Shown here: in pieces, positions 37,556-53,911 of the stretch
Layout: each line of letters opens with the position of its first letter
Numbering within the stretch: position 1 is the first letter of the stretch
Origin: Verrucomicrobiota bacterium
Lineage (GTDB): Bacteria > Verrucomicrobiota > Verrucomicrobiia > Opitutales > Puniceicoccaceae
Assembly: GCA_038744685.1 (NCBI GenBank)
Contig: JBCDMB010000023.1
Coordinates: 1-55,828 of the forward strand
Length of the DNA stretch: 55,828 nt
Reading direction: 5' to 3'
Notes under the pieces: generated by a model
What the model was told of the DNA's origin: nothing
Database searches by the model: none
Seen by the model: the letters and a program-made list of their open reading frames with translations, nothing else
Program-made: the position numbers and the translations under genes

Positions 37556-40500
37556 ATGGCCGAAGGTTCTTCATCTGTGACTGACGACAAAAGACAGAAC
37601 CACTGGAACATATCCGCCGATACCGGCGGAACCTTCACTGATGTTGTTGCCACCAGTCCGGAGGGAGAGAGAAAGGAGGCGAAGGTTCTTTCTTCTGGAA
37701 CGCTTCGTTTGCGGGTTGTTCAGAGACTGGGTGAGGGTCGGTTGCGGGTGGATTCGTTGGGTCTTCCAGATGGATTTCTTGGAAATAGTCTGTTGGTCGG
37801 CGGCGGAATCGTTCGAGAGTTCGTCGAGGACAGGCTGACAGTCGACGGAAGCCTCAACCCTGATTCCGATACCGTGGAAATCGACACGGGACTCCCGGCT
37901 CCGCTTCTCGGCGCGCATCTGGTGACTCAGACGCCTCTTGCGCAACCGTTACCGCCGATCCGAATGAGGATCGCGACTACTCGCGGAACCAATGCCCTCC
38001 TCGAAGGAAAAGGGGCCAAGGTTATTCTACTGACCAGTGAGGGCTTTACCGACCTTCTCCGCATTGGAGACCAAACCCGTCCAGACTTGTTTCAACGCCC
38101 GATTCCATCAAGGAGAAGATTGTTCGCCGAAACGGTGGGATTGCCGGTGAGGCTAAACCGAGAGGGCTCTTCGGAGGCTTTTGGAACGGGAGAGGGAATT
38201 CTCGAAGAACTGGAGAAGTATGCTGGAGAAGACCGTGTTCTCGTTTTGTCATTGTGCAATGGATACTTTGGGTCTGAAATCGAGGAAGAATGGGTATCGA
38301 AGTTTCGCCATTTGCCCTGGGCGAAAGTTGTCACTGCATCTTCTTTGAGTCAATTACCTGGTTACCTGCGACGCACGGAGACTGCGGTGGTAGAGGGATA
38401 TTTGGGTCCGATTCTCGACAGCTATCTGGATTCGATAGCGGAGGTGGAAGGGGTGAACGAGCTCAAGGTAATGACGAGTGGGGGTGGGGTCCTTTCCCGT
38501 GATCGATACCGTGCGGTCGATTCCCTGTTGAGTGGTCCAGCCGGCGGAGTGATTGGTGCCGTGGGGGCAGCAAACAGGGTGGGAGTGTCTTCGTTTCTGG
38601 CCTTTGATATGGGAGGCACCAGTACGGACGTCTCTCGCTACGACGGGAACTTGGTCTATCAGAGTGAGCTGTCTGTGGGGCAAGCGAAGGTTTACTCAGA
38701 GGCGTTACGCATCGAAACGGTCGCCGCAGGAGGTGGGTCGATCTGTGCGTTTGACGGTCATGGTTTTACGGTGGGGCCAGAAAGCGCAGGGGCTGATCCA
38801 GGTCCAGCCTGCTATGGCCAGGGAGGGCCGCTCACCTTGACCGATGTGCACCTGCTCCTTGGTCGTCTGGATCCGTCCCGATTTGGAATACCGCTGCATT
38901 CTGAGGCGGCATCGATTGCCTTTGTCCATCTCCTAAATCAGGCGAACAAAAAACAAGCTTCAACAAAGGAAAAGGAAGATATTCTTCGAGGTTTTCTTCG
39001 AATTGCGGACGAAACCATGGCAGGTGCACTGCGAAAGATCTCTATCCGTGATGGCCTCGATCCTAGCTCGTTTTCGCTAATATCTTTCGGCGGAGGTGGC
39101 GGTTTGCATGCCTGCAGCCTTGCTGAAATGCTTGGGATGAAACAAATCCTGCAGCCGGGTAGTGCCGGAATTCTTAGTGCCGAGGGTCTGGCGGATGCTC
39201 GTCCGGAAAGGATTGAACGGCGACCGGTTCTATTGCTGGTGAAGGATTTTGAGAATCAGGCTTCTGCCCGTTTTGCGGAAATTGAGAAGCTGATCTTGGA
39301 TGAGTGGGAGGGGGGATCAGTCGAGACGATTGTCTGGCAGCGTGAGGTGTTTCTTCGGAGGCTTGGGCAGGACGCGACGCTTCGTTGCGAGTGGACCAAG
39401 GGCGTCGATTTGCAGGCTGCGTTTCAGCGTGAGTTTGAGCGGATCTTCGGTTTTCAGCAGGAGGACCTTATGATTGAGGTAGCTACGATCAGGGTTCGGG
39501 CCGTGGGCGAAGAAGTCGAGCAATCCAAGGAAGAGTTCTCCCGTGAACAGCTGGTAGAGACACAGGCGGGCGACTTTCTCTCGGAGGATGATCTTGCGTC
39601 GGGTTGTTTTGGTCAAGGGCCCTGTGTTATCTCTCAGAAGTTCGGGACACTGGTGGTTGAGAAAGGCTGGCAGTTTATGGTTGGGGAGAAAGGTTCCATT
39701 CTTCTCGATCAGGTTGAAGACTCCCACGTGGAGCCGGTAGGATTTGGATCGACGGAGATTCGCCATGAATTGTTCCGCAACCGCTTCGGCGGAGTCGTCG
39801 AGTCGATGGGAGAGGTCCTGAGGCGGACTGCGCTGAGCGTGAACATTCGGGAGCGCTTGGATTTTTCCTGTGCTTTGCTGGATGCCGAAGGGCGATTGGT
39901 CGTCAACGCACCGCACATCCCGGTCCATCTGGGTGCGATGGGAGTTTGCGTTCGATCCGTGTCTCAAGTGCTCAACTGGAAGCCGGGGGATATTGCGATT
40001 ACGAACCATCCCGGTTTCGGCGGTTCGCACCTGCCGGATGTAACTGTAATGGCACCGGTTTTTTTCCAAGAGAGGGGCCTCGTTGCTTTTCTGGCAGTGC
40101 GTGCCCACCATGCCGAGATTGGGGGGATTCGGCCGGGTTCGATGCCTGCGGATGCACGCTCGCTAGGGGAGGAGGGTGTGGTTATCCCTCCGTTCCATCT
40201 CTTTCGAGAAAGCAAGGACCATCGGGATCGGCTGCGGCAACTGTTGCAGGGAGGAGACGGAATCCTTGGCTCACGGGCTCTCGAAACCAACCTCGCCGAT
40301 GTGGCGAGCCAGGTGGCAGCAGTTCGCGAGGGATTGTTCCTCGTTGAAAGAATGATTCAGAGCTTTGGGATTGAGGAGATTCAGTTGTATCTAACCCGCA
40401 TTCTCGAGCAGTCCTCCAGTTGGATGCTAAAGACAATCACCGCCTTACCGGTTAAAGAAAAAGAGGTAATTGTCCATTTGGATGGAGGCGAGGAGATTCA

Positions 40501-41335
40501 CTGTAGTTTTCGGGTCAACGACCAAGGCCGACTGCAGATCGATTTCGATGGAACGACTGCGGGGAATGGAGCGTTTCAGTGTCCGCTCGCTGTATCGCTG
40601 AGCTCGGTGCTGTATGTTTGCCGTCTGCTCGTTGACCGTCCGGTTCCATTGAATGAGGGGCTTCTGGCTCCAGTGGATCTCACGGTTCCAGAAGGATGTC
40701 TACTCTCTGCGACCTTTTCCGGTGAAGACATTTCTGCGATGCCGCCCGTTGTTGCGGGAAACGTGGAAGTCAGTCAGCGGTTAGTGCAGGCCTTGATCCG
40801 TCTTTTCGGGATTGAGGCCGATAGCCAGGCCACCATGAACAATGTCATCTTCGGAAGCGGGAACTTTTCCCATTACGAAACCCTGGCGGGAGGAGAGGGA
40901 GCCTCCGCACGCGGACCGGGAGCCGACGCCGTCCAAGTGCACATGACCAACACCGCGATCACCGATGCTGAGATTCTGGAACACCGGTTCCCGGTAAAGG
41001 TAGTGAATTTTTCGATACGGAACGGATCCGGAGGGCAGGGAAGGAATTCTGGCGGTTGCGGAGTCGTTCGGGAGTATCTTTTTGAAGAAGAGGTAGAGCT
41101 TTCCCTCCTCACGCAACAACGGGACTTCGGACCAAAGGGAAGCGATGGCGGCCTGAATGGTTCGCCCGGCCAACAAATCCTCATCCATCCCGATGGTACA
41201 GAAGAAACCTTACCCTTCGCCTCCACTGTGACGGTTCCTAGAGGCAGCCGCCTGCGAGTGGAGACTCCCGGAGGTGGGGGATGGGGAGAGATTGAGGAGA
41301 GATCAGAAGATAGACTCCAGGAGACAGAATTTTGA
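37556..41335 (+). CDS. 5-oxoprolinase / hydantoinase, fused A and B parts
   Basis: The protein has 1259 residues, the length of the single-chain enzyme. It opens 5-oxoproline to glutamate with ATP. The HyuA-like half comes first: [53 protein letters not shown]. The HyuB-like half starts near residue 740 ([41 protein letters not shown]) and has [14 protein letters not shown] and the [18 protein letters not shown] end. In many bacteria the halves are separate, so the fusion is notable but known. Substrate specificity within the family is not provable here. Monocistronic. Confidence 0.92.
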
Positions 41336-41718: not shown

Positions 41719-42504
41719 ATGAATAAAAACAAAAAACACTCACTCCTGCAGACCAAGTCAAGCAGGGGTCTGACCCTGATCGAGCTCCTTGTGGTTCTGG
41801 TCATTCTTGTCGCCGTTGGCGGCCTTCTCGTCCCAACCATCAGCAACGCCCTCGCTCGGAGCCACGTCGCGACTTGTGCGACGAATTTCCCGGAAGTGCA
41901 TCAGATGGTCCAAAGAGCCCTTTTCGAAAGCACTAGCTTGGGAACCGATTTTGAGTCGGGAATCGATATTGGAGATACTAGTGTAGGGGTCAATGAGCAG
42001 GCAGTTTTGACCCTAACTGCGGATGATGTAGCGGCTCTTGCGGATGTTGGCATTACAACAGTAGTTGATCATGATGAGGGTGCTACTGATTACAGTGTTA
42101 CGTTCAACATCGGCGCCGCACAGCGTACGTTGGCCACTGGTCAGACACTTATTACTTTGACGCCTGCACAGGCTGAGAGCATTTATCTGCCTAACGGGGC
42201 TGGAGATCGTTATGTCTGGCTCGGTATAGGCCCTGACTGGTCCCTTTTGGGCACCCTTGCTCCCGAACCACCAGTGCATTTTGGTGACACTCCGGGATTT
42301 CTCCCTGATGAGGTTCATTCCCGGTTCGGAATTATTCTACAACTCGCTGAGGACGACGGAGCGGGCACTGCTGTCCCGTTTGAGTCGGCCGAGTTCAAAC
42401 GAGTCAGCTACTCGCTCGGGAATACTGACGGCGTCGCCGGAGCCGAGTTTGAAACAGGGGACAACCACATCGGTGTCTACTGGACCGAGTTAAACGAGAG
42501 CTAA
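41719..42504 (+). CDS. Type II secretion pseudopilin 1
   Basis: The protein has 261 residues. Leader of 19 residues, then SRG|LTLIELLVVLVILVAVGGLLVPTIS: prepilin cleavage site with Glu+5, but with Leu instead of Phe after the cut. The exported part has HFGDTPGFLPDEVHSRFGIILQL and ends GVYWTELNES. It is longer than GspG and differs from GspH/I/J by eye. First gene of the secretion locus, and followed by a strong hairpin, so it may be expressed at a higher level than the rest. Confidence 0.88.
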   Translation: MNKNKKHSLLQTKSSRGLTLIELLVVLVILVAVGGLLVPTISNALARSHVATCATNFPEVHQMVQRALFESTSLGTDFESGIDIGDTSVGVNEQAVLTLTADDVAALADVGITTVVDHDEGATDYSVTFNIGAAQRTLATGQTLITLTPAQAESIYLPNGAGDRYVWLGIGPDWSLLGTLAPEPPVHFGDTPGFLPDEVHSRFGIILQLAEDDGAGTAVPFESAEFKRVSYSLGNTDGVAGAEFETGDNHIGVYWTELNES

Positions 42505-42527
42505 ACGCTAAACGGTATTAACCTGAG

Positions 42528-42567
42528 GCGTGGCGCTCCCGCTCACTGGGAGCGTCACGCTTTCTTT
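42528..42567 (+). terminator. Rho-independent terminator after pseudopilin 1
   Basis: Arms GCGTGGCGCTCCC (42528-42540) and GGGAGCGTCACGC (42548-42560) pair over 13 positions with one G-T, followed by TTTCTTT. It divides the locus, so pseudopilin 1 is likely made as a separate or excess transcript. Confidence 0.88.
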
Positions 42568-42898
42568 CCCACTGTAGATGATGATCTAAATGACACGTTT
42601 TTCGTCACCATCTTGTAAAGGCGAAGGGCACTCAGAGCATGCATGCCTTCCCATCAGCCTTACGAACTTTTTAACGGGTTCGAGTCACAAGATTACCTAA
42701 TTTGACAGTTGGCCTACTACGGATCTGATCGCTGCCGCAATTTTGTTGGCGGCTTCTTTTGTTGTTACAAACAAGTATGTAAGTGTCGAAATCAAGCAGC
42801 ACCCGGGGTGCCGCAAATCTGCTCTCAAAACTCTCTTTTTTTCTCTAGGTGAGAGCATAAAAAAAATTTCCAGACTAAAATATCCTCTTGATGAAACC
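42568..42898. other. Intergenic region between pseudopilins 1 and 2
   Basis: No gene is seen. The last 100 bases are T- and A-rich (CTCTCTTTTTTTCTC, AAAAAAAATTT), a likely second promoter region for the rest of the locus. The open frame reaching back to 42743 is in-frame with pseudopilin 2 but has no ribosome site or family-like leader. Confidence 0.4.
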
Positions 42899-43705
42899 AT
42901 GAATACTCTAAACAAAAAGGAGAAGGGCAGGTTCTCAGTTTATTCCCGTCGCGGTCTAACTCTAGTTGAGCTTCTTGTCGTCCTTGCAATTATCACCGCT
43001 GTTGCAGGCATCGTCATCCCGATCATTCCGGATTCGCAGCAGCGTTCGCATGGAGCAACAGGAGCGGGTAACGTACGCGAACTCGCCAAAGCCGTTGAAG
43101 TGCAGAAAAGCTCGACCGGTAGCTTTGGCAATGAGTGGGACAGTCTGATCGATAGTAACCCGGCCACGGTTGCCCCGACTGACCTCGTGGTGGAAGACTT
43201 GAGTTCTCCGGGAGTGGGCACGGTCGAAGAGGCGATTGTCAATGCCCTCGTTGAGGCGGGGATCGTGACCGCCTATGAACACGATGATTTCAGCGACCCT
43301 ACCGTGAACCAGACGTTTGACGGGCTCACGATTGCTTTGGTCGATAAACTGGGGTCAGACGAAGATGTCGCCACCCTCACCGCCGCTGGCGAAGACCGCC
43401 TTGGCCTTCCGGGTAGTGTATTGAATGGAGTACCTGCTTCGGACATTGAAGCCTACGTCGCTTTTGGGGTTGGGCAGGAATCTACTCTGGTCGGTCGGAG
43501 TCTAGTCGATGCCCCCGTGCAATATCCGTCGGGAGCGACGAATCCGACAGACCACTATTCACGGTTCATTGCTGTCTTTGCGGTGCCGGTCGACGGCGCC
43601 CCCCTTCGTCTCGCCACCATCACCGGTGTCGAAGATCTGGCCGGAGGTGATCGTCTGCGCCGCCTCGGCGACTATCTGGACGATTATTTCAACAGTTTTA
43701 ATTAA
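42899..43705 (+). CDS. Type II secretion pseudopilin 2
   Basis: The protein has 268 residues from ATG 42899, giving a 24-residue leader (NTLNKKEKGRFSVYSRRG) before RRG|LTLVELLVVLAIITAVAGIVIP. It resembles pseudopilin 1 in layout: a HATGAGNVRELAKAVEVQ helix, an EDRLGLPGSVLNGVPASDIEAYVAFGVG part and a HYSRFIAVFAVPVDG part, matching the HSRFGIILQLAEDDG part of pseudopilin 1. The two look like a duplicated pair. The hydrophobic helix has Glu+5. Confidence 0.88.
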   Translation: MNTLNKKEKGRFSVYSRRGLTLVELLVVLAIITAVAGIVIPIIPDSQQRSHGATGAGNVRELAKAVEVQKSSTGSFGNEWDSLIDSNPATVAPTDLVVEDLSSPGVGTVEEAIVNALVEAGIVTAYEHDDFSDPTVNQTFDGLTIALVDKLGSDEDVATLTAAGEDRLGLPGSVLNGVPASDIEAYVAFGVGQESTLVGRSLVDAPVQYPSGATNPTDHYSRFIAVFAVPVDGAPLRLATITGVEDLAGGDRLRRLGDYLDDYFNSFN

Positions 43706-43734
43706 GACTGGAACTATCGTCCTTTGATCGGTCA

Positions 43735-44382
43735 GTGATCCCCACTTTAGATGGAATGATTCCTCGCACTCCTCACTGCTTCCGCCTGCTACGAGCGACT
43801 GGCTTCACGCTGGTTGAGCTTTTGGTCGTCCTGACCATTCTTGGTGCAGTGGCGGTCATCGCGACTCTCGCCTACACAAGCGACCCAGTAGTTCTCGACG
43901 CAAGTGGCGAGCCGATCACCTCGCGGGAGGCAGCTACTACAGCGACGCTACGGGAAGTTGAAACGGCTCTCACCGGGGGAGGACTGGGCGAAAGCGGCTA
44001 CCTCCAACACATCGGCGCGCTGCCCTCGCGCATTGCGGGACTCATGGAAAACATCGACAGCGAGGACGCCTACGACATCACCACCAAACGTGGCTGGCAG
44101 GGGCCGTACTTTATCACGAGTGTCGTGCGCTACGGTGACTTTATCGAAACGGGCGACGGCTTTGACGACAACTCGGACATTGCCGGCATTGAGGACGAAC
44201 CGACTATCATCGATGCTTGGGGTAAACCGATTGTTCTCCAGGAGCCCGGTGACGAAGACGATGCACGCCTTGTCTCTGCCGGACCGAACCGGATTTTGGA
44301 AACGGACCCGAGTGATGCGCTGGATCCTGATCGGGGTGATGATCTCGTTCTGTTTCTCCTCAGTGTAGACCCTTTGCTGTAG
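43735..44382 (+). CDS. Type II secretion pseudopilin 3, GspG-like
   Basis: The protein has 215 residues from GTG 43735; ATG 43756 gives 208. Prepilin site RATG|FTLVELLVVLTILGAVAVIATLAY with Glu+5. The exported part has GWQGPYFI, DAWGKPIVL, LVSAGPNRI and ends DDLVLFLL, close to the WGxPY and SxGPDG...DDI core of GspG, the main pseudopilin with its Ca site. It is therefore the best GspG candidate of the four. Confidence 0.88.
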   Translation: MIPTLDGMIPRTPHCFRLLRATGFTLVELLVVLTILGAVAVIATLAYTSDPVVLDASGEPITSREAATTATLREVETALTGGGLGESGYLQHIGALPSRIAGLMENIDSEDAYDITTKRGWQGPYFITSVVRYGDFIETGDGFDDNSDIAGIEDEPTIIDAWGKPIVLQEPGDEDDARLVSAGPNRILETDPSDALDPDRGDDLVLFLLSVDPLL

Positions 44383-44386
44383 ATTT

Positions 44387-45616
44387 GTGAGTCAACGATT
44401 GATGAATACTGATAGTCAGGTCATCTCGGAACAGGTTTCGGATGGCGGAACTTTGCCAGATGCCGGATGGATAGGCGGCTGCAGTCAATCCCGAGCGGCT
44501 GCTCTTGACCGTCGAAGCCTTGGCGTAGTCGGTTTAGCTGCCGGTGTTCGTTCTACGGTTCAATACTGCTCTCGGCGACTAAAGTCGCCGTTCCTTGGTT
44601 TGTTATTTGCGAGGAACGATGACTTCACTCGTCGTAGCGGTTGTCCTGAACGAAACCTATTTGCCTCTGACGACGGGAGACGGACAAAGGCAAATCCAAC
44701 CCGTTCCCGAGACGGTCTAACCCTCATTGAGCTACTCGTTGTCCTGAGCATCATTGCGGTGCTTTCATCGGTCGTCCTGCGAAATGTTGCCCAAATGACC
44801 CAGGAAAATCGATACGATGCCAATATTGATCAATTGGAAGAGATCGAAGCGAGCATTGTCGGCGATTCTGCCTTCGTTGGATTCGTCAGTGATATCGGAA
44901 GATTGCCAAGCGCTCAAGGGACTGACCCTCTCACCCAACTAAGCGAGCTTTGGGAAGCGGGTGGGCTGCCTGCCTATGCAATCGTTGCGCCGTCCGGCGA
45001 TTCCGAGGTTCGGGTCGGCGCGGGATGGCGCGGACCTTATTTGAACCTTGGACTCAATCGGTCTGAGGTGACAGATGGTTTCGGAAATTCTTTAATCCCT
45101 CTCGACATCAGTGGATCAGCCGCCGACGACGGAGATCCGATTTCGATCATCCAGTCTGGCGGAGCCAACGGCACGACTGACCTCTCTGATTCGGGAATCA
45201 ACGAAGATCTCGCAATTGTCTTCGCAGCCGACTCAACGGCTGTCTCTGGCGGACTTGCTGATACCGAGGGAGACTTTTGGCGGAGCGACCTGGTGGTAAC
45301 CGTGGTTCGGGATGGCGGCTCGATCGCTCTGGCAGACGGCGCAAACCTAATTGTTCGCGTCTACGGGGCAAACGGTGCCGGCGGAGCACATACAGTTTTG
45401 GAAGAGAAGCGAGTTCTCCCAGCCGACTCTCCCTCCGAATCCTTTACTCTTAGCGACCTACCCGTTGGTGCACTCGCATTACGCGCCTATCAGGATGCAA
45501 CAGACCCTGCTAACAAAGACAGTGCGATCACCACAACCCTTCCCGAACGCCGGTCACCGGTAACCCAAATCCGGCTCGGGCAGTTCAACGAGCCGGTCAC
45601 CCTTACCCTCTATTAA
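44387..45616 (+). CDS. Type II secretion pseudopilin 4, long leader, start uncertain
   Basis: The prepilin site is SRDG|LTLIELLVVLSIIAVLSSVVLRNVA at 44714-44790. The frame stays open from GTG 44387, which would give a leader of about 110 residues; normal leaders have 5-30. No ATG lies in-frame between; TTG 44600 is one option, with no ribosome site. A hairpin GGCGACT/AGTCGCC (44574-44589) sits within this stretch, so part of it may be non-coding. The mature part of about 300 residues has GWRGPYLNLG and a beta-rich C-terminal domain (HTVLEEKRVLPADSPSES). Confidence 0.75.
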   Translation: MSQRLMNTDSQVISEQVSDGGTLPDAGWIGGCSQSRAAALDRRSLGVVGLAAGVRSTVQYCSRRLKSPFLGLLFARNDDFTRRSGCPERNLFASDDGRRTKANPTRSRDGLTLIELLVVLSIIAVLSSVVLRNVAQMTQENRYDANIDQLEEIEASIVGDSAFVGFVSDIGRLPSAQGTDPLTQLSELWEAGGLPAYAIVAPSGDSEVRVGAGWRGPYLNLGLNRSEVTDGFGNSLIPLDISGSAADDGDPISIIQSGGANGTTDLSDSGINEDLAIVFAADSTAVSGGLADTEGDFWRSDLVVTVVRDGGSIALADGANLIVRVYGANGAGGAHTVLEEKRVLPADSPSESFTLSDLPVGALALRAYQDATDPANKDSAITTTLPERRSPVTQIRLGQFNEPVTLTLY

Positions 45617-45726
45617 CTAAAGAAATTACAAGCAAAGACCCGGGGTTCATCCGATTGCAACAGGGATTCGAACTCAGAAATTCCAAAAGTTTTCAGACAA
45701 ACTCTAATTTTCACCAAAACAAACTC

Positions 45727-47157
45727 ATGCCACTTCCTTCTGGAGTTTCCCTCACTGTGTTGGTCGATACTGGATCCGCCCGTTTCCGAGTGGATCTAAA
45801 GCGTCGCCAGAGTGCCTATGCAGTTTTGCGAATCATCTCTGAAGAAGTCCCTGAGAATCAGGCGAACGAAGAAGAAGAAACTGAGCCGGATTATTTCGAC
45901 CTTTCGGAAGACGTCGACAAGGGGGGTTGGATTACGGCATTGCTGGATCATCGTCCGGCACCGGCGAAGGATGTGTTTGTCTTTAGCGTCCGAGTCGGAG
46001 CGGCAGTCGCTGAGGTGCCAAGTTTCGGCGGTGGAGACCAAAGTGAGACGATTGCGATGGAAATCGAGGCACTGACCGGCCAGAGCACTGAAGAGTCGCA
46101 GTGGACGTGGAAACGTCTCTCCGCACCCGATGGTTTTTTAAAGGCATGGGGTATCGCTGCGCCGTTTTCCCAATTGATCGCCTGGCGCGAAGTCATTGGC
46201 GGGAGGCGCGGCTGCCGGTTGATGGGGGTTGGGCATCCAGCTGGGCTTCCGACAGGAGCAGAGCAGCAGATCGAACTATGGGAAGGTTTGGCGATGCACG
46301 TGCAGAATGCGCGCGGGAAAAAGAACATCCGTGGATGGAGCGGTGTTGGTGCTGAGCGTGTGGCTTTGGCCGACCCCGAGGTGCAAACTAGTCTCTCAAA
46401 GTATGGTTTGCTTGCGGTGACCGACCGGAATATGCCCGAATGGTCCGATCTCGAGGGTATCGAATGGATCCGTCTGGATTCCGCTGATGGTCAACAGCGC
46501 TGGGCCGAAGGTCTCGCCACCGTTATGGACTTCCAAGCCCGGCGGCCTGGACTGATCCCGTGGTTAAGTATTCCTAAGCCGGAGATGTCGACGCGGGCAC
46601 TGGTCACAAGAACCGTTGCGGTTACGGCGGCAGTTCTCGTTCTGACGATTGCCTATCACTTGTTTTTACTGGGCCGGAAGGATAGTCTGGAAGAGCAGGT
46701 GGCCAGTTTGCGGACACCGATTGACGAACACCGGGAGCGGCAAGAGGAAATCCGCAAGCTGAATCAAGAGCTCCGGACCTTAAGGAGTCGTCCCGAGAAA
46801 GCCGTTTTCAACATTGAAGCCCACGAGGATCGTTTGCAGTCCCTCCTTTCGAATTTGGCTGATGCCGCTGGCGGCAATATTCTCCTTCGCAGCATCAAGC
46901 CGGAAGGCTTCGATGTGCACGTTTCGGGCGTTGCTACGACCCCACAAGGCGCGGCTGCCTACGCGATGGAGCTTGATTTTTTCGGAGGAGCCTCCGGCTG
47001 GAGAGCTTCCCTGGTGGAGCGCGAAGCCCTTCTCGTCAGACCCGACGGCGGGCCGTGGACGTTTTTGATCGAATTGACCCCTTCTCCAGTTCGCACTCCG
47101 GTTCAGCCTGATTCGGGTTCTGCGAAGAAAGTAATTGCAGGAGGATCAGGCCAATGA
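45727..47157 (+). CDS. GspL / PilM-PilN-like assembly protein
   Basis: The protein has 476 residues from ATG 45727; the frame is open to 45655. The first 290 residues are cytoplasmic and weakly actin-like by position (compare PilM). One membrane segment lies at about 302-320 (VAVTAAVLVLTIAYHLFLLG). A coiled coil follows (LEEQVASLRTPIDEHRERQEEIRKLNQELRTLR), then a small ferredoxin-like domain (LQSLLSNLADAAGGNILLRSIKPEGFDVHVSG). This order is that of GspL, the link between the ATPase and the periplasmic parts. It overlaps the next gene by four bases. Confidence 0.75.
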   Translation: MPLPSGVSLTVLVDTGSARFRVDLKRRQSAYAVLRIISEEVPENQANEEEETEPDYFDLSEDVDKGGWITALLDHRPAPAKDVFVFSVRVGAAVAEVPSFGGGDQSETIAMEIEALTGQSTEESQWTWKRLSAPDGFLKAWGIAAPFSQLIAWREVIGGRRGCRLMGVGHPAGLPTGAEQQIELWEGLAMHVQNARGKKNIRGWSGVGAERVALADPEVQTSLSKYGLLAVTDRNMPEWSDLEGIEWIRLDSADGQQRWAEGLATVMDFQARRPGLIPWLSIPKPEMSTRALVTRTVAVTAAVLVLTIAYHLFLLGRKDSLEEQVASLRTPIDEHRERQEEIRKLNQELRTLRSRPEKAVFNIEAHEDRLQSLLSNLADAAGGNILLRSIKPEGFDVHVSGVATTPQGAAAYAMELDFFGGASGWRASLVEREALLVRPDGGPWTFLIELTPSPVRTPVQPDSGSAKKVIAGGSGQ

Positions 47158-47720
47158 AAACGGTTTCCCCCCGCGAACGTGTGATGGTGCTGCTCCTGCC
47201 TTCTGCCATCATCTTACTCATCTATGGCTTCTTTGTGGTTCAGCCTCTTTTTAAGGAAAAAGAAGAGCTGGAGCGGCAACGCACTGTCTTGGAACTGCGT
47301 TTACCTACCCAAGCCGAGCGTTCTACGGTCCGGCGACAGCTCCTCGAGCTTCAACGGGAGGTAAGCACGATCCGCGGATCGGATAGCGAAAGTTCAAAAG
47401 GACGCTCGGTGTTTTCTCCGAACGAAGTGCTCGAGGCCAGTGCGGAACTTGAAGAGTTGATGGAGGTCCATGGTGTGATTCTGATGTCGGAGTCCCGCGC
47501 CGAGGCCCAGGATCGGCGAGCGTACGAGCGTCTGCTCGATAAGCGCCCTGGCAGCGAAATCAGCCGTCTCGAGCTGGCTGGAACGTTCGCAGGGATTTCT
47601 GCCTTGGTCAGCTCCCTCGATCAGACTGGACCAGCACTCTTGCCGGTTGCCATTGAGATGGACGCGGGCATGCAGGGTGAGACCGATCTGCGCCGCTGGA
47701 ATCTGTGGATTTGCCGTTGA
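47154..47720 (+). CDS. GspM-like protein
   Basis: The protein has 188 residues. A short cytoplasmic start (KTVSPRERVMVLL) is followed by a membrane segment (PSAIILLIYGFFVV), then a coiled coil and a periplasmic domain of the GspM/PilO kind. It partners the GspL-like protein encoded just before. The stop overlaps the PilT-like start by one base. Identification rests on layout and place. Confidence 0.75.
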   Translation: MKTVSPRERVMVLLLPSAIILLIYGFFVVQPLFKEKEELERQRTVLELRLPTQAERSTVRRQLLELQREVSTIRGSDSESSKGRSVFSPNEVLEASAELEELMEVHGVILMSESRAEAQDRRAYERLLDKRPGSEISRLELAGTFAGISALVSSLDQTGPALLPVAIEMDAGMQGETDLRRWNLWICR

Positions 47721-48913
47721 TGAGTGGGGAAGGAAATGGTGCTGGAGCGCCCGAACTTTCGACTTTGCTCGAAGCCCTCATTGAAGAAGAGGCCTCCGAC
47801 TTGCACCTGGCGCCCGACCATGCGCCTCTTTTCCGGATTGACGGAACACTTCGTTTCCTCGACGCCTTTCGCGAACCTTTTCCACCCGAGGTGATTTCCA
47901 GTTTGGCCAAGCACCTCGCCGGCCCCGCGATGACGGACACGGTTGAGGCCAAAGGCTCGGTAGATGGAGCAGTGACCCACGGAGAAGACGGGCGCTTTCG
48001 CTACAACATCTATCGAAGACTTCCGGGACTTGCGATTGCCATCCGGCGGCTGGAGAACCGCTTTCGTTCCTTGAAAGATCTTGGCCTCCCTCAGGGACTC
48101 GACTCGTGGTGCGATCTGCCTGACGGTTTGGTGCTGGTCGCCGGGCCGACTGGTTCGGGAAAATCGACGACCCTCGCGACCCTTCTCGACCAGATCAACC
48201 GGACCCACGCCAAACACATTATCACGATTGAGGACCCGATCGAATACCTGCACATTTCTCAACAAGCCAGAATTGACCAAAGGCAAATTGGTGCTCACGC
48301 CTTTAGCTTTCAGGAAGCCCTTATCTCTAGTCTGCGGCAGGATCCGGATGTCATTCTCGTCGGAGAGGTGCGCGAGAGGGAGACGATTCGAACCGCTTTA
48401 ACGGCTGCCGAGACCGGACATCTGGTCTTCACGACTGTTCACGCACCTGACTGTGCCGGAGCGATCCAGCGGATTGCCTCGGCCTTTCCGGCCGACGAAC
48501 AGCCAGGCATCCTCCGGCAGCTCAGCATGAATCTGCGGGGCGTCCTCACTCAGCACTTGATCCCTGCCGACGGTCCGATCACCCGCACTCCCACCGCCGG
48601 AAAAGCGCAGCGTCCCCGAATTCCTCTCTGCGAGATTCTGCAGAATACTCCAGCGGCTGCCAACCTCATCGCGAAGGGCCAGTATCAGAGCCTTTATTCC
48701 GTCATGGAGACCGGTTCACGGCAGGGCATGCAAACCCTTGAACAGAATATGATCGAGTGGGTGCAAAGTGGTTCCCTCCTTCCGGCAACCGCCTTTTCAT
48801 TCACGAAAAATCCTGGAGTCTTGGAACAAAGACTGGCTCGCGAAGCGAGTCTCCGACAATCCGAACGCAGCTTCGGCTCGTCTGGATTGCAGGCAGCGAG
48901 GAAAGAACGATGA
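47720..48913 (+). CDS. PilT-like hexameric ATPase
   Basis: The protein has 397 residues from ATG 47720. Walker A GPTGSGKSTT near residue 145, an ASP box ITIEDPIEYLH, Walker B VILVGEVRERET and the HAPDCAGAIQRI segment are typical of PilT, the pilus retraction motor. The N-terminal LLEALIEEEASDLHLAPDHAPLFRIDG is also PilT-like. Classical type II secretion loci hold only GspE, so a retraction-type ATPase here is unusual. The end overlaps gspE by four bases. Confidence 0.92.
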   Translation: MSGEGNGAGAPELSTLLEALIEEEASDLHLAPDHAPLFRIDGTLRFLDAFREPFPPEVISSLAKHLAGPAMTDTVEAKGSVDGAVTHGEDGRFRYNIYRRLPGLAIAIRRLENRFRSLKDLGLPQGLDSWCDLPDGLVLVAGPTGSGKSTTLATLLDQINRTHAKHIITIEDPIEYLHISQQARIDQRQIGAHAFSFQEALISSLRQDPDVILVGEVRERETIRTALTAAETGHLVFTTVHAPDCAGAIQRIASAFPADEQPGILRQLSMNLRGVLTQHLIPADGPITRTPTAGKAQRPRIPLCEILQNTPAAANLIAKGQYQSLYSVMETGSRQGMQTLEQNMIEWVQSGSLLPATAFSFTKNPGVLEQRLAREASLRQSERSFGSSGLQAARKER

Positions 48914-50475
48914 CAGGCCCGGCCGATACCTCTTTGCTCAAAGCGAGTCCTTCCGAGACCGACTCAGAACCGCTTGATCTGGAGACGATCAAATTTGATC
49001 CGCGTTATGCCCTGCTCACTCCGCCGAGCCTGATGATTCGCCGTAGGCTGCTTCCTCTTCTCGAATTGGATGGCTCCCTCCACGTTGCGGTCGAGCGGGC
49101 TCTTGATCCGAACTCGGCACGTCTCTTGGAGCGCTTCATCAAGCTTCCCGTGGTTCCAGTACTTGCCACTGGCGAATCAATCCGGGCGCTTCAAACTCGC
49201 CTCTTCGGGAACTTGCGGGAGGCAATGTCTCAGGATCGACCGGTCATCGACACCGTAACCGCTCGCTCCGAGAGCGATCCAGACGACGCCGACGAAGCGA
49301 TTGCTCTTTGCGACCAACTATTGAAGACAGGTCTGATCCGAGGAGCATCCGATATCCATTTCAATGTGGCTCGCGATGATTCTGTCCAAGTGCGAATGCG
49401 GATCGACGGTTCTCTCGTGGAAGATCCGTCTCTGCCCGCCTATTTGCGCTCTTCTGTGTTTAACCGCATCAAGGTGCTTGGCGGGTTGGATATTTCTGAA
49501 AAGCGGGCCTCACAGGATGGCTCTTTCACGTTTGAGCCCGGCGGTGTTTTGCCGTCTACCGAGGTCCGCGTTGCGACCATTCCGGCCCGCCACGGTGAAC
49601 GCATCACTCTGCGATTACTGATCCGGGACGAAGGGATTCTAACGCTCAACAAGTTGGGCTTTTCCGACGATGACTTGGAGCGGTTTACCCGCGCAGTGAC
49701 TCTTCCTTACGGCATGGTGTTGATGACCGGGCCAACTGGAAGCGGCAAGAGCACCACACTCTATGCCGCCATCAAGCATCTTCTGGGGAAGCGCACCGCA
49801 AACGTGATGACGGTAGAAGACCCAATCGAATACGAGATAGACGGGGTCACTCAGACGGAAGTCGACGCCCGACGAGAGAAAGTCTCCTTTGCCTCATCGC
49901 TCCGCAGTATTCTCCGCCATGACCCTGATGTGGTTATGCTTGGGGAAATCCGGGACCGCGAAACAGCCGAGCTGGCCGTCCGGGCCGCCCTGACCGGACA
50001 CCTTGTTTTGAGTACTCTCCACACGAATACTGCAGTCGGTGCAGTGACCCGCCTCCTCGATCTCGGTGTGGACCGTTTCCTTATCGCCACCGTTCTCCGG
50101 CTGGTCGCAGCCCAGCGACTGGTGCGGGTCCTTTGTCCCCATTGCCGGACAGAGAGTTCGCTTACTGAAACAGAAGCTCAGCTACTCGGGTCATCCGCTT
50201 TGGCAGGGGAGCGCTGTTTCCGCCCAAACCGCTGCTTGCGCTGTGGTGGAAAGGGTTTCATCGGTCGTTCCGGGCTTTTCGAGATTCTGCCCATTCGATC
50301 AGAAGAGACTCGCCTTATCGGCAGCAGTTCCAACGACGAATCAATCGAATATCGCCTCGTCGAGCGTCGGAGCGAAGTGGGGATTCCCTCCCTTCTTGAA
50401 AGCGGACTTGCGGCTGTTCGAACTGGAATGACAACCGTTGACGAAGTGATCACTGCGACGCTTGACACCGTCTGA
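48910..50475 (+). CDS. gspE: Type II secretion ATPase GspE (PilB-like)
   Basis: The protein has 521 residues from ATG 48910. The frame is open to 48757 but that part overlaps the PilT-like gene. Walker A GPTGSGKSTTLYAA; MTVEDPIEYEIDGVTQTEVD; Walker B DVVMLGEIRDRETAELAVRAALTGH; and a zinc-binding four-cysteine motif CPHC ... CLRC (about residues 411-455). It drives pseudopilus assembly from the cytoplasm. The N-terminal domain is short (about 120 residues), lacking a full GspE N1 domain. Confidence 0.94.
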   Translation: MTGPADTSLLKASPSETDSEPLDLETIKFDPRYALLTPPSLMIRRRLLPLLELDGSLHVAVERALDPNSARLLERFIKLPVVPVLATGESIRALQTRLFGNLREAMSQDRPVIDTVTARSESDPDDADEAIALCDQLLKTGLIRGASDIHFNVARDDSVQVRMRIDGSLVEDPSLPAYLRSSVFNRIKVLGGLDISEKRASQDGSFTFEPGGVLPSTEVRVATIPARHGERITLRLLIRDEGILTLNKLGFSDDDLERFTRAVTLPYGMVLMTGPTGSGKSTTLYAAIKHLLGKRTANVMTVEDPIEYEIDGVTQTEVDARREKVSFASSLRSILRHDPDVVMLGEIRDRETAELAVRAALTGHLVLSTLHTNTAVGAVTRLLDLGVDRFLIATVLRLVAAQRLVRVLCPHCRTESSLTETEAQLLGSSALAGERCFRPNRCLRCGGKGFIGRSGLFEILPIRSEETRLIGSSSNDESIEYRLVERRSEVGIPSLLESGLAAVRTGMTTVDEVITATLDTV

Positions 50476-50477
50476 GA

Positions 50478-51704
50478 ATGCCCCGCTTTGCCTACACCGT
50501 AAACGCCGGAAATGGCGAACGCTCCACTGGGGTGGTTGAAGCGGCGAGTCTGGATGCGGCTCGCTGGGCACTGCTCGGTAGAGGGGTGAAACCTGAACGC
50601 CTCCAGCCGGCGTCGGATGCGGACGACGATCAAATTGCCGGCAGAGGCACGAGAGCCTTTTTGTTCAATCCAACCACTTGGAGAAGGATCAAGTCGGTCC
50701 ACGTTGAGCTTACCCTGCGGCAACTTGAGGTCATGCTCCGCAGTGGTCTAACCCTCCTTTCATCGATTGAAACGATTATCGATCAACCCCCTTCAAGGGG
50801 AGTGCGAGCTGTTTATCAGCAGGTCCGGCAGCGGGTTGAGTCTGGCATCCCCTTCGCCGAGGCACTCTCCGAACATACCTGTTTTCCAAAGTCGGTGACC
50901 GCAATGGTTGGCCTTGGTGAGGCCAGCGGTAATCTTGAGGAGGTTTTGCTCCGCTGTGCCGAAACAATGGAGAGCGCACGCCGTAACCGAACTGCAGTCC
51001 TGACCGCGCTTTTCTACCCAAGCTTTACTTTCCTTTTTGCCATTGGAGTGAGCGTTTACATGGTCCTTGCAGTGATCCCGCCAATGAAAACGGCGCTGGA
51101 AGCACTCGGACGTCGCCTGCCAGCCATGACGCAGTCCCTCATCGACGTTGCCAACTTCTTCACGGACTACGGCGCGATCATTCTCGTAGTGCTTTTGACT
51201 CTCGGTCTCATGCTACTTGGTTTTTGGCTCTGGCCCCCGGGGCGATTGGCTCTCGACCGCTTCCAGCTCCGGGTGCCACTTGTAGGCACTATTGTCCGTT
51301 GTTCAGGAACCGCTCTCTTCTCACGCCTGCTTTCGACCCTTTTGAACAGTGGAATTCCGCTAGTCGATAGTCTGCGTATCCTCACTACAATTCATCGCAA
51401 TCGTTACTTCGTTCAGGTGGTCGACGATACACGCAACCTGATCCTGCAAGGGGGAAGTCTTGCTGCGGGCATTGGCAAGGGAAAGGCCTACACTCCGATG
51501 ATGGTGCGGATGGTGGGAGTCGGCGAAACTACAGGAAACCTCGAAGAGACTCTTCTGAACGTAGCCGAGTTTCATGAAGAACGCCTCCAAACTCTGATCA
51601 AACAACTCAGTGCGGTCCTCGAGCCGGCGATCGTCCTCATTGTTGGCCTCCTCGTGGGCTATGTTTACCTCGCTTTCTTTGTAGCGCTCTACGGAGCCGT
51701 CTAA
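50478..51704 (+). CDS. gspF: Type II secretion inner-membrane platform protein GspF
   Basis: The protein has 408 residues, the usual length. Two GspF domains: about 70-190 (LRQLEVMLRSGLTLLSSIETI ... MVGLGEASGNLEEVLLRCAE) and about 270-395 (FSRLLSTLLNSGIPLVDSLRI ... MVGVGETTGNLEETLLNVAEFHEE). Membrane segments follow each (FLFAIGVSVYMVLAVIPPM, AIILVVLLTLGLMLLGFWL, PAIVLIVGLLVGYVYLAFFVAL). Two bases after gspE. Confidence 0.95.
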   Translation: MPRFAYTVNAGNGERSTGVVEAASLDAARWALLGRGVKPERLQPASDADDDQIAGRGTRAFLFNPTTWRRIKSVHVELTLRQLEVMLRSGLTLLSSIETIIDQPPSRGVRAVYQQVRQRVESGIPFAEALSEHTCFPKSVTAMVGLGEASGNLEEVLLRCAETMESARRNRTAVLTALFYPSFTFLFAIGVSVYMVLAVIPPMKTALEALGRRLPAMTQSLIDVANFFTDYGAIILVVLLTLGLMLLGFWLWPPGRLALDRFQLRVPLVGTIVRCSGTALFSRLLSTLLNSGIPLVDSLRILTTIHRNRYFVQVVDDTRNLILQGGSLAAGIGKGKAYTPMMVRMVGVGETTGNLEETLLNVAEFHEERLQTLIKQLSAVLEPAIVLIVGLLVGYVYLAFFVALYGAV

Positions 51705-51766
51705 ATTTGATGATACATCCAATAAAACTCCTTCTGCCCAGTCTTCTAGGCTGTTCTAAAGAAAAT

Positions 51767-53911
51767 ATGCTTAGCCGTTCTTTTATGGTTTGTGCTTTTC
51801 TGTGTTTCGCAACGATCTTTGTGCCCGCAGGCTCAGCGCTCGCTCAAGGTACGAGTGGGTCAAACGGTGATCCGACTCGGCCAAACTCCTCAACTGGCGC
51901 AGCACTCGAAGCACTCCGCCGAGCGTCCGGAAACAATCAGGATGATCAGGATGAAGAAGATGAGATTTCTGTCATCGGTGTGGTGATTGCAGGTGGGGAA
52001 GAGTCTGCCCGTGGCATGGTTATTCTCAAAATTGACGACTCAATTTTTCCTGCAATTGAAGGCCAGACAGTCCGAACGGGGGAACAAAACGTGACCATAG
52101 GAAAGCTCAATCTGAACATGGTTGAGCTTGTGGATCCGAAGCGAGGATCAATACAGCAGGTGTTTTTCGGATCGAATCGCGGGGTGGCGACAGAGGAAGG
52201 TCAAGTAGCTCTAATCGAGCTTTCCTCCGTCCCCTTGTTTCTTGCCGCACAAGCGCTTTCCTACGTGACGAACACCCAAATTACTGCAACGGTTGAGGCG
52301 CAAATCCGCCCGATCACCCTTTTTCTACGGGATGTCACCGTTGATGAAGTCCTCTCCAGTATCGCCGCGACCCATCACCTCTATTCGAGCACGATACGCG
52401 ACTCCGGTATCATCCGATTTCAGACGGTTGAAGAGTTCGCAAGGGGATCGGCTGCCCTGCAGGATCAACACAATCAGGTCTTCACGCTTCGCTTCCCCAA
52501 TGCGCGGGATATTGCCCTGACTATTCGTGATCTGTATGGGGATCGAGTCCGACTTTCCGAGCGGGTCGACGAGAGTGAGGAGTCTGGTGAGTTCCTGACC
52601 GATGATTTAGAACAACGACTTGAACGTTTCGATATCATCGCCGGTCGGAGCCAAGGTCTGGGGGTTGGAGACCAAGGCGGACAAGGAGGCACCATTGTTG
52701 GATCGAATCGTTTGTCCTCACTCCGCAATAACCAAAACAACAGTCTTCGGAACTTTAACCAAAGAACAGATCAGTCCTCTACCCAGGGAGAATTTGAATT
52801 TACGGACGAGGAAATCAGAAGGCTTGGGTTGGTTGATGACGCCCGCATCGACGCTATCCGGGATTCACGGGCGGATATCTTTGTTTCGATCATCGACCGA
52901 CTGAATAAGTTGCTCGTCCGGACGAGAGATGAGCGAACGATGAGCGAGATCGAGGAACTGGTAGAAGATCTCGATGAACCGGCGCAGCTGGTCTTTCTCG
53001 AAATCCGGATTCTCCGAGTGCAGCTCGACGACGGTTTGGATACCGCTTTCAACTGGGCTTTTTCAGAGGGTGATGGGGCAGGCATCTTTCTGCCGACAGA
53101 TCCTGAAATCAACGGTTCGCTTCTCTTTAGTTATCTCGACAGTTCCTTCGCGGCGGAGATTCGTTTTCTGCAGGATAAGGACAAGCTCACCGTCCTCGGT
53201 CAGCCTTCGCTCCTAACAACAAACAACGAAGTCAGTCGGATTTTTATCGGCGAGCAGGTGCCGGTTCTGGTTGGTTTCGGAGACAACACGACGATCGTCA
53301 CCGATCTCGGAAACACCGTTAATTTTGCGAACGCGGAGTACGAGGACCAGGACGTTGGATCTACCCTTTTGATCACTCCAAACATCAACGATGACGATAC
53401 TGTGGAGCTTCGCTTGCTTCAGGAAGAGTCTCAGATCGTCAGAAACGGAGCCAACGTCTTAGTGCCGAATGGTGACGGAGGTTTTGACGAAAGACCGATT
53501 GATATTGTGGCTGCACAGACGGTGAGTGGTACTTTTGTTGCAGCGAATAGCCGGACATTTGCCATAGGAGGATTGATCACTGAGTCGATTGAAGATCAGA
53601 TCTCACAGATACCTCTTCTTGGTGACCTCCCTCTCATCGGCAGACTCTTTCGGAATCAGGCAACGACTCGTAGAAGAGACGAGATCGTTCTGTTGGTAAC
53701 CCCAACCATCATAAACAACCCGGATGCAGGAGAGTTAATGACCCGAGACTTCGTTGAACGGCAGTCGCTGTTTCCCAATCCAATGCCGGAGGATGGAAAT
53801 CTGGATGTTTTCGAAGAAAGTGACGTCCTTGTCCCAGGGGTGCCTGAGAAAAACGATGCCGCAGGAACGATCAACAGCTTCTTCCGCGGCCAATACGGTC
53901 CAAGAAAATAG
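51767..53911 (+). CDS. gspD: Type II secretion secretin GspD
   Basis: The protein has 714 residues from ATG 51767, which starts a clear signal peptide (LSRSFMVCAFLCFATIFVPAGSALAQ); the frame is open to 51707. It forms the outer-membrane pore. First a GspC-like homology part (SVIGVVIAGGEESARGMVILKID ... VRTGEQNVTIGKLN, about 65-125), then N0/N1 domains with LFLAAQALSYVTNTQITATV and FTLRFPNARDIALTIRDLYG, a linker rich in Asn, Gln and Arg (near 300-345), and the secretin core (LVFLEIRILRVQLDDG, VLGQPSLLTTNNEVSRIFIGEQVPVL, IPLLGDLPLIGRLFRNQATTRRRDEIVLLVTPTII). The GspC-like stretch at its head may make up for a missing gspC. Confidence 0.94.
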   Translation: MLSRSFMVCAFLCFATIFVPAGSALAQGTSGSNGDPTRPNSSTGAALEALRRASGNNQDDQDEEDEISVIGVVIAGGEESARGMVILKIDDSIFPAIEGQTVRTGEQNVTIGKLNLNMVELVDPKRGSIQQVFFGSNRGVATEEGQVALIELSSVPLFLAAQALSYVTNTQITATVEAQIRPITLFLRDVTVDEVLSSIAATHHLYSSTIRDSGIIRFQTVEEFARGSAALQDQHNQVFTLRFPNARDIALTIRDLYGDRVRLSERVDESEESGEFLTDDLEQRLERFDIIAGRSQGLGVGDQGGQGGTIVGSNRLSSLRNNQNNSLRNFNQRTDQSSTQGEFEFTDEEIRRLGLVDDARIDAIRDSRADIFVSIIDRLNKLLVRTRDERTMSEIEELVEDLDEPAQLVFLEIRILRVQLDDGLDTAFNWAFSEGDGAGIFLPTDPEINGSLLFSYLDSSFAAEIRFLQDKDKLTVLGQPSLLTTNNEVSRIFIGEQVPVLVGFGDNTTIVTDLGNTVNFANAEYEDQDVGSTLLITPNINDDDTVELRLLQEESQIVRNGANVLVPNGDGGFDERPIDIVAAQTVSGTFVAANSRTFAIGGLITESIEDQISQIPLLGDLPLIGRLFRNQATTRRRDEIVLLVTPTIINNPDAGELMTRDFVERQSLFPNPMPEDGNLDVFEESDVLVPGVPEKNDAAGTINSFFRGQYGPRK

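What the first reader, a model, noticed from the sequence alone, without database searches (positions are those of the whole stretch)
41719..53911. Type II secretion locus mixing T2SS and pilus parts
Four pseudopilins, GspL-like and GspM-like proteins, GspE, GspF and GspD are in one direction, but a PilT-like retraction ATPase sits before gspE. gspC, gspH-K in normal form and a prepilin peptidase are not seen. GspD begins with a GspC-like stretch. This may be a dynamic, retractile pseudopilus system particular to this phylum.
Basis: partly seen in the sequence, partly recalled or inferred. Interest (0 to 1): 0.65.

Follow-up and report, generated by a model that had tools for sequence, protein, structure and literature searches.

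The report
Secretion-like pilus operon with own PilT
This ten-gene operon encodes a machine that looks like the type II protein-secretion machine but carries its own copy of PilT, the motor that pulls bacterial pili back in; related operons with the same motor gene occur widely in Verrucomicrobiota and Planctomycetota, whereas published models hold that type II secretion systems lost this motor.

Summary
The operon is real: four prepilins, a one-chain GspL-like protein, GspM, PilT, GspE, GspF and a secretin in one direction. PilT is locked in by stop/start overlaps (TGATG with M, ATGA with E). PilT sits immediately before gspE in 37 of 42 complete homologous operons from public genomes (five lack it), and lies within the operon in 19 of 19 further loci. 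Hosts are Verrucomicrobiota (with Kiritimatiellota, Lentisphaerota) and Planctomycetota, so the system is not particular to one phylum. Operon PilTs form one clade (97% support) apart from the genome's four other PilTs, one of which lies in a separate pilus locus. T, E and F distances correlate at 0.93-0.96. Catalytic motifs are intact. The secretin starts with an HR-like domain that is a separate upstream gene in many relatives; it resembles PilP/HofP more than GspC. The GspL fold, a GspG-type pseudopilin motif and model ranking of E, F and D lean to T2SS; PilT and a single predicted N1 module lean to T4P. Most likely it is a PilT-bearing, T2SS-like type IV filament machine of these phyla. 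Retraction, and secretion versus uptake or adhesion, are untested. I found no paper describing it.

The parts
41719..42504 (+). prepilin 1 (pil1)
   Evidence: N_methyl 3.6e-5; 59% identical to the first prepilin of L101
42899..43705 (+). prepilin 2 (pil2); ORF opens at 42743, start inferred from sequence
   Evidence: N_methyl 5.2e-6; 50% identical to L101
43735..44382 (+). prepilin 3, GspG-type pseudopilin (D-x-WG...SAG motif)
   Evidence: N_methyl 6.9e-6, T2SSG 0.017 below cut-off; the motif is found in 30 of 39 operon homologues and in K-12 GspG
44387..45616 (+). prepilin 4 (start codon uncertain)
   Evidence: N_methyl 2.8e-6; 49% identical to L101
45730..47157 (+). GspL-like protein: actin-like cytoplasmic domain, TM, ferredoxin-like periplasmic domain in one chain
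   Evidence: AlphaFold2 model, Foldseek and VIA matches to GspL, PilM and PilO
47154..47720 (+). GspM-like
   Evidence: T2SSM 6.1e-5, below gathering cut-off; ATGA overlap with L
47720..48913 (+). PilT-family retraction-type ATPase
   Evidence: TIGR01420 349 bits, over cut-off; nearest solved structures are PilT; motifs intact; TGATG overlap with M
48910..50475 (+). GspE-like extension ATPase with MshEN domain
   Evidence: TIGR02533 426 bits, MshEN 7.9e-10; ATGA overlap with T
50478..51704 (+). GspF-like inner-membrane platform
   Evidence: T2SSF 1.8e-53, TIGR02120 264 bits
51767..53911 (+). secretin with HR-like, N0, N1 (with insert) and secretin domains; ORF opens at 51707
   Evidence: PF00263 1.8e-34; AlphaFold2 model; fold matches
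51965..52165 (+). HR-like (PilP/GspC) beta domain fused to the secretin
   Evidence: separate upstream gene in many relatives; strands in the model; hhalign to HofP E 0.0012 against 0.39-0.72 for controls

Best explanation
The locus encodes one envelope-spanning type IV filament machine, most likely a T2SS-like secretion machine that has a dedicated PilT. Inferred working: the prepilins are cut by the single prepilin peptidase encoded elsewhere; GspE with GspF, docked through GspL and GspM, polymerises a GspG-type pseudopilus; the secretin, whose HR domain is part of the same chain here, is the outer-membrane gate. PilT takes turns with GspE on the GspF platform and depolymerises the filament, giving an active extend-and-reset cycle instead of relying on GspE alone. 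Shown: the gene set, its tight coupling, conservation and co-inheritance, intact PilT catalytic motifs, predicted folds of L and D. Inferred: that PilT acts on this filament, that retraction occurs, and that the cargo is secreted protein.
For: PilT directly before gspE in 37 of 42 complete operons and in the operon in 19 of 19 others, in two phyla. Operon PilTs are one clade at 97% support, apart from T4P PilTs of the same genomes. Operon GspEs are one clade at 99%. T-E, T-F and E-F distance correlations 0.93, 0.93, 0.96, none of 2000 permutations reaches them. Reading-frame overlaps M/T and T/E. Walker A, Asp box, Walker B and His box intact. T2SS-like features: GspL fold in one chain, GspG-type motif in pil3, GspD, GspE and GspF models score best.
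Against: Five operons in at least three branches lack PilT, so it is dispensable there or supplied in trans. AIRNLIRE of the C-terminal part reads AAANLIAK. The secretin model has one N1 module instead of N1-N3, and the HR piece is closer to PilP/HofP, both T4P-like. GspD, GspE and GspF scores lie under the equivalog cut-offs. No substrate is known.
Confidence: 0.55

Rival explanations
1. It is a retractile surface pilus of T4aP type used for uptake or adhesion, not for secretion. It extends through the secretin, binds polymers or surfaces, and is pulled back by PilT.
For: PilT is the hallmark of retractile T4aP; PilP/HofP-like HR piece; secretin with HR-N0-N1 as in PilQ and top Foldseek hit PilQ; operon GspEs beside HofB and Neisseria PilF at 85% support in the free tree. 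Dextran-binding, pili-like fibres of unknown make are described in Planctomycetes (PMC5394234).
Against: One-chain GspL instead of PilM plus PilN; GspG-type motif; GspD/E/F models score best; joining operon GspEs with proteobacterial GspEs is not rejected (p-AU 0.718); the genome has another T4P locus.
Confidence: 0.27
2. The machine is a T2SS, and the PilT paralogue does not retract: it modulates GspE (for instance as mixed or alternating hexamers) or recycles pseudopilins.
For: Degenerate AIRNLIRE motif in this branch; several operons do without PilT; type IV filament ATPases may form mixed hexamers, and extension ATPases alone can retract (PMC6711533).
Against: All catalytic motifs are kept, and many T4P PilTs of these genomes also depart from AIRNLIRE.
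Confidence: 0.13
3. The PilT of the operon serves the genome's other pilus in trans, and its place in the operon is regulatory convenience or chance.
For: A T4P locus exists on contig C39. The operon is patchy: tested genomes of the same genus and family lack it.
Against: The C39 pilus has its own PilT in another clade; same-genus genomes without the operon keep four PilTs but lack this one. Same place next to gspE in two phyla, and distances of T, E and F are correlated.
Confidence: 0.05

Closest known systems
Type II secretion system (proteobacterial Gsp/Pul/Eps/Xcp)
   Same: GspD, GspE, GspF, GspL in one chain, GspM, GspG-type pseudopilin; single operon; peptidase may be encoded elsewhere
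   Different: Has PilT; HR piece fused to the secretin or a small secreted gene instead of a TM-anchored GspC with a further domain; secretin model with one N1 module; no recognisable GspH-K; operon GspE forms its own clade
Type IVa pilus (PilB, PilT, PilC, PilM-Q)
   Same: PilT beside the extension ATPase and platform; PilP-like HR piece with RDPF/DPT motif next to the secretin; N0-N1-secretin layout
   Different: PilM and PilN joined as GspL; GspG-type motif in one prepilin; own PilT clade distinct from the T4aP PilTs of the same genomes
MSHA pilus
   Same: MshEN domain in the extension ATPase; MshL model matches the secretin
   Different: MshL ranks third (94 bits against GspD 161); PMC10191384 places MSHA after loss of PilT
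T2SS-like operon without PilT on contig C22 of the same genome (L045)
   Same: prepilin, secretin, GspE, GspF in one operon
   Different: No PilT; its GspE lies in another clade

Membership tests
PilT/PilU retraction ATPase family (TIGR01420) | score over curated cut-off; Walker A, Asp box, Walker B, His box | tested here: met
   349 bits against 319; motifs intact; solved PilTs are the nearest structures
PilT/PilU retraction ATPase family (TIGR01420) | AIRNLIRE motif of classical PilT | tested here: not met
   AAANLIAK in the window; also altered in many T4P PilTs of these genomes, so not decisive for the family
Type II secretion system | GspD, E, F at equivalog cut-off | tested here: not met
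   best-scoring models but 161/351, 426/630 and 264/424 bits
Type II secretion system | GspL in one chain with cytoplasmic and periplasmic domains | tested here: met
   model and fold matches
Type II secretion system | GspG-type major pseudopilin | tested here: inconclusive
   motif present in pil3 and in 30 of 39 homologues, T2SSG below cut-off
Type II secretion system | TM-anchored GspC | tested here: not met
   HR-like piece is in the secretin chain or in a small gene with a signal-like N-terminus
Type II secretion system | minor pseudopilins GspH-K | tested here: inconclusive
   three further prepilins, no model over cut-off beyond the N-terminal motif
Type II secretion system | no dedicated PilT (PMC6668835, PMC10191384) | tested here: not met
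Type II secretion system | secretes folded proteins | not testable with these tools
   needs a mutant secretome
Type IVa pilus | PilT with PilB and PilC | tested here: met
   T, E and F adjacent
Type IVa pilus | separate PilM and PilN | tested here: not met
   L is one chain with both domains
Type IVa pilus | surface filament that retracts | not testable with these tools
   needs imaging

The most novel reading that the evidence does not exclude
This is a separate family of type IV filament machine, beside T2SS and T4aP, that kept PilT, and in Planctomycetota and Verrucomicrobiota it works as a retractile secretion or macromolecule-uptake machine, possibly the one behind the dextran-binding fibres of Planctomycetes. 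If so, a T2SS-like machine does not require loss of PilT.
Probability: 0.3. Interest if true: 0.8.

Novelty: new variant of a known kind. Interest (0 to 1): 0.58.

Why it matters
Current accounts say that T2SS arose from T4aP on losing PilT and so works without a dedicated retraction motor (PMC6668835, PMC10191384). A T2SS-like operon with a co-inherited PilT clade in two phyla gives a natural system in which the question of whether the pseudopilus is actively pulled back can be tested by deleting one gene. It also gives a concrete candidate machine for enzyme export or polymer handling in polysaccharide-degrading Verrucomicrobiota and Planctomycetota.

Tried and rejected
Chance insertion of pilT: rejected. 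T serving the C39 pilus: unlikely, that locus has its own PilT in another clade. 'Particular to this phylum': rejected. A clade of only the PilTs that lie before gspE, leaving out the orphan L156 and the PilTs after D, is rejected (p-AU 0.0008), whereas all operon PilTs with L156 are not rejected as one clade (p-AU 0.518). Pfam and NCBIfam scans of the HR pieces gave only coiled-coil noise. The PDB profile search gave PilP only at E 0.75-0.89, i.e. not significant, so HR rests on position, motif, strand pattern and a weak hhalign score. A first genome-contig query with a 15-sequence secretin alignment had no stretch conserved enough. Literature searches found no description of a T2SS with PilT in these phyla, within an open-access library only. 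Whether the window copy was gained horizontally: operon GC is 55% against 53% before it, not telling.

Full report
WHAT IS THERE. Ten reading frames from 41719 to 53911 run in one direction. Family scans confirm four prepilins, GspM, a PilT-family ATPase over its curated cut-off, GspE, GspF and a secretin. The unrecognised 45655-47157 ORF folds as a GspL: an actin-like cytoplasmic domain (best PDB hits the cytoplasmic domain of GspL at E 9.7e-7, then PilM), a TM and coiled coil, and a ferredoxin-like periplasmic domain matching EpsL, PulL, XcpY and PilO. Frames are tightly packed: L/M overlap by ATGA, M/T by TGATG, T/E by ATGA. The PilT gene is therefore probably translated together with M and E (inference).

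SAME GENOME. The 3.64-Mb genome holds nine T2SSE-family ATPases, three secretins and one prepilin peptidase. Contig C39 has a pilB-pilT-pilB2-pilC locus. C22 has another T2SS-like operon without PilT. C3 has a PilT/PilU-like pair and C7 a lone PilT. So a separate pilus locus exists and owns its PilT.

RELATED LOCI. The window secretin has a close homologue in one genome of the same order (61% identity, same ten genes in the same order, L101) and distant ones across the phylum. The two tested genomes of the same genus and the one of the same family lack it. A scan of 84,980 species genomes gave 80 loci, nearly all titled Verrucomicrobiota, Kiritimatiellota, Lentisphaerota or Planctomycetota. 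The window belongs to the GTDB phylum that holds these Verrucomicrobia: G196, 'same phylum', has a contig of the same length (80,703 bases) as JAFIGD010000019.1, titled Verrucomicrobia. Of 42 complete operons in this set, 37 have T directly before E and five have none. All 19 complete loci from the genome search have T in the operon: between M and E or F, or after D. In the five loci without T the only PilT-like match is GspE itself.

ONE INHERITED UNIT. Operon PilTs from both phyla (35 rows) lie on one side of a branch with 97% support against 54 others, which include the genome's own four other PilTs, those of same-genus genomes without the operon, and solved PilTs of Pseudomonas, Geobacter, Aquifex and Thermus (for an earlier set). 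Operon GspEs form one clade at 99%, apart from proteobacterial GspE, the genome's PilBs and its C22 GspE; the loci without T are nested inside, which points to losses. Distances of T, E and F over 59 loci correlate at 0.93-0.96, with no permutation above 0.21.

IS T A WORKING MOTOR. Walker A, Asp box, Walker B and His box are intact. The AIRNLIRE motif reads AAANLIAK, degenerate in this branch, but it is altered in many T4P PilTs of these genomes too. That the motif matters for PilT function is from my own knowledge. Retraction is inferred, not shown.

THE SECRETIN. The model (mean pLDDT 70) shows a helix and seven strands (67-133), N0, one N1 split by a disordered insert, then the secretin domain. 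In many relatives the first part is a separate gene of 117-200 aa right before D with a DPT or RDPF motif. K-12 HofP has the same layout. A profile of these pieces scores E 0.0012 against HofP, 0.093 against GspC and 0.39-0.72 against two controls. GspC HR binds GspD N0 in known T2SS, and PilP is its structural homologue (PMC3169554), so the fusion would join two known partners. The HR identity remains a moderate inference.

WHAT IT WORKS LIKE AND WHAT IT IS. T2SS-like: one-chain GspL, GspM, GspG-type motif in pil3, model ranking of E, F and D. T4P-like: PilT, PilP-like HR piece, one predicted N1 module. The E tree does not settle the branch: free search puts the clade beside HofB and Neisseria PilF at 85%, while forcing it with proteobacterial GspE is not rejected (p-AU 0.718). 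I therefore describe it as a PilT-bearing, T2SS-like type IV filament machine and do not file it as a T2SS proper, since the equivalog cut-offs, TM-anchored GspC and absence of PilT were tested and not met. Published reconstructions state that T2SS lost PilT (PMC6668835; PMC10191384). Searches in the open-access library found no account of such a system; this does not exclude one elsewhere.

SCORE. The conservation and co-inheritance are strong and run against the textbook gene set, but it is a variant of a known kind of machine and its function is untested: interest 0.58.

Noticed in passing
L045 (genome contig C22, 6001-25999): A second T2SS-like operon of the same genome (prepilin, secretin, GspE, GspF) without PilT.
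   Followed up: partly
L047 7058-9485 and L048 7384-8532: A PilT/PilU-like pair and a lone PilT that stand apart from other recognised pilus genes.
   Followed up: partly
L157, L159: About 730-aa proteins made of two PilT-like halves in one chain.
   Followed up: no
L219, L225, L227: Planctomycetota operons split into two divergent halves that lack PilT; their pil3 also lacks the D-x-WG...SAG motif.
   Followed up: partly
L121, L122, L123, L116, downstream of the secretin: A MoxR-type AAA ATPase gene follows directly after the secretin (L121-L123 with a second conserved gene of about 312 aa).
   Followed up: no
L211, L218, L220, L221 and other Planctomycetota loci, after D: A gene of about 500-530 aa follows the secretin in most Planctomycetota operons; not identified.
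   Followed up: no
L242: A contig titled Methyloprofundus (Gammaproteobacteria) holds E, F, C and D of this operon: contamination of the assembly or transfer.
   Followed up: no
37556-41335: Hydantoinase A and B (oxoprolinase) in one 1259-aa chain just upstream of the operon.
   Followed up: no
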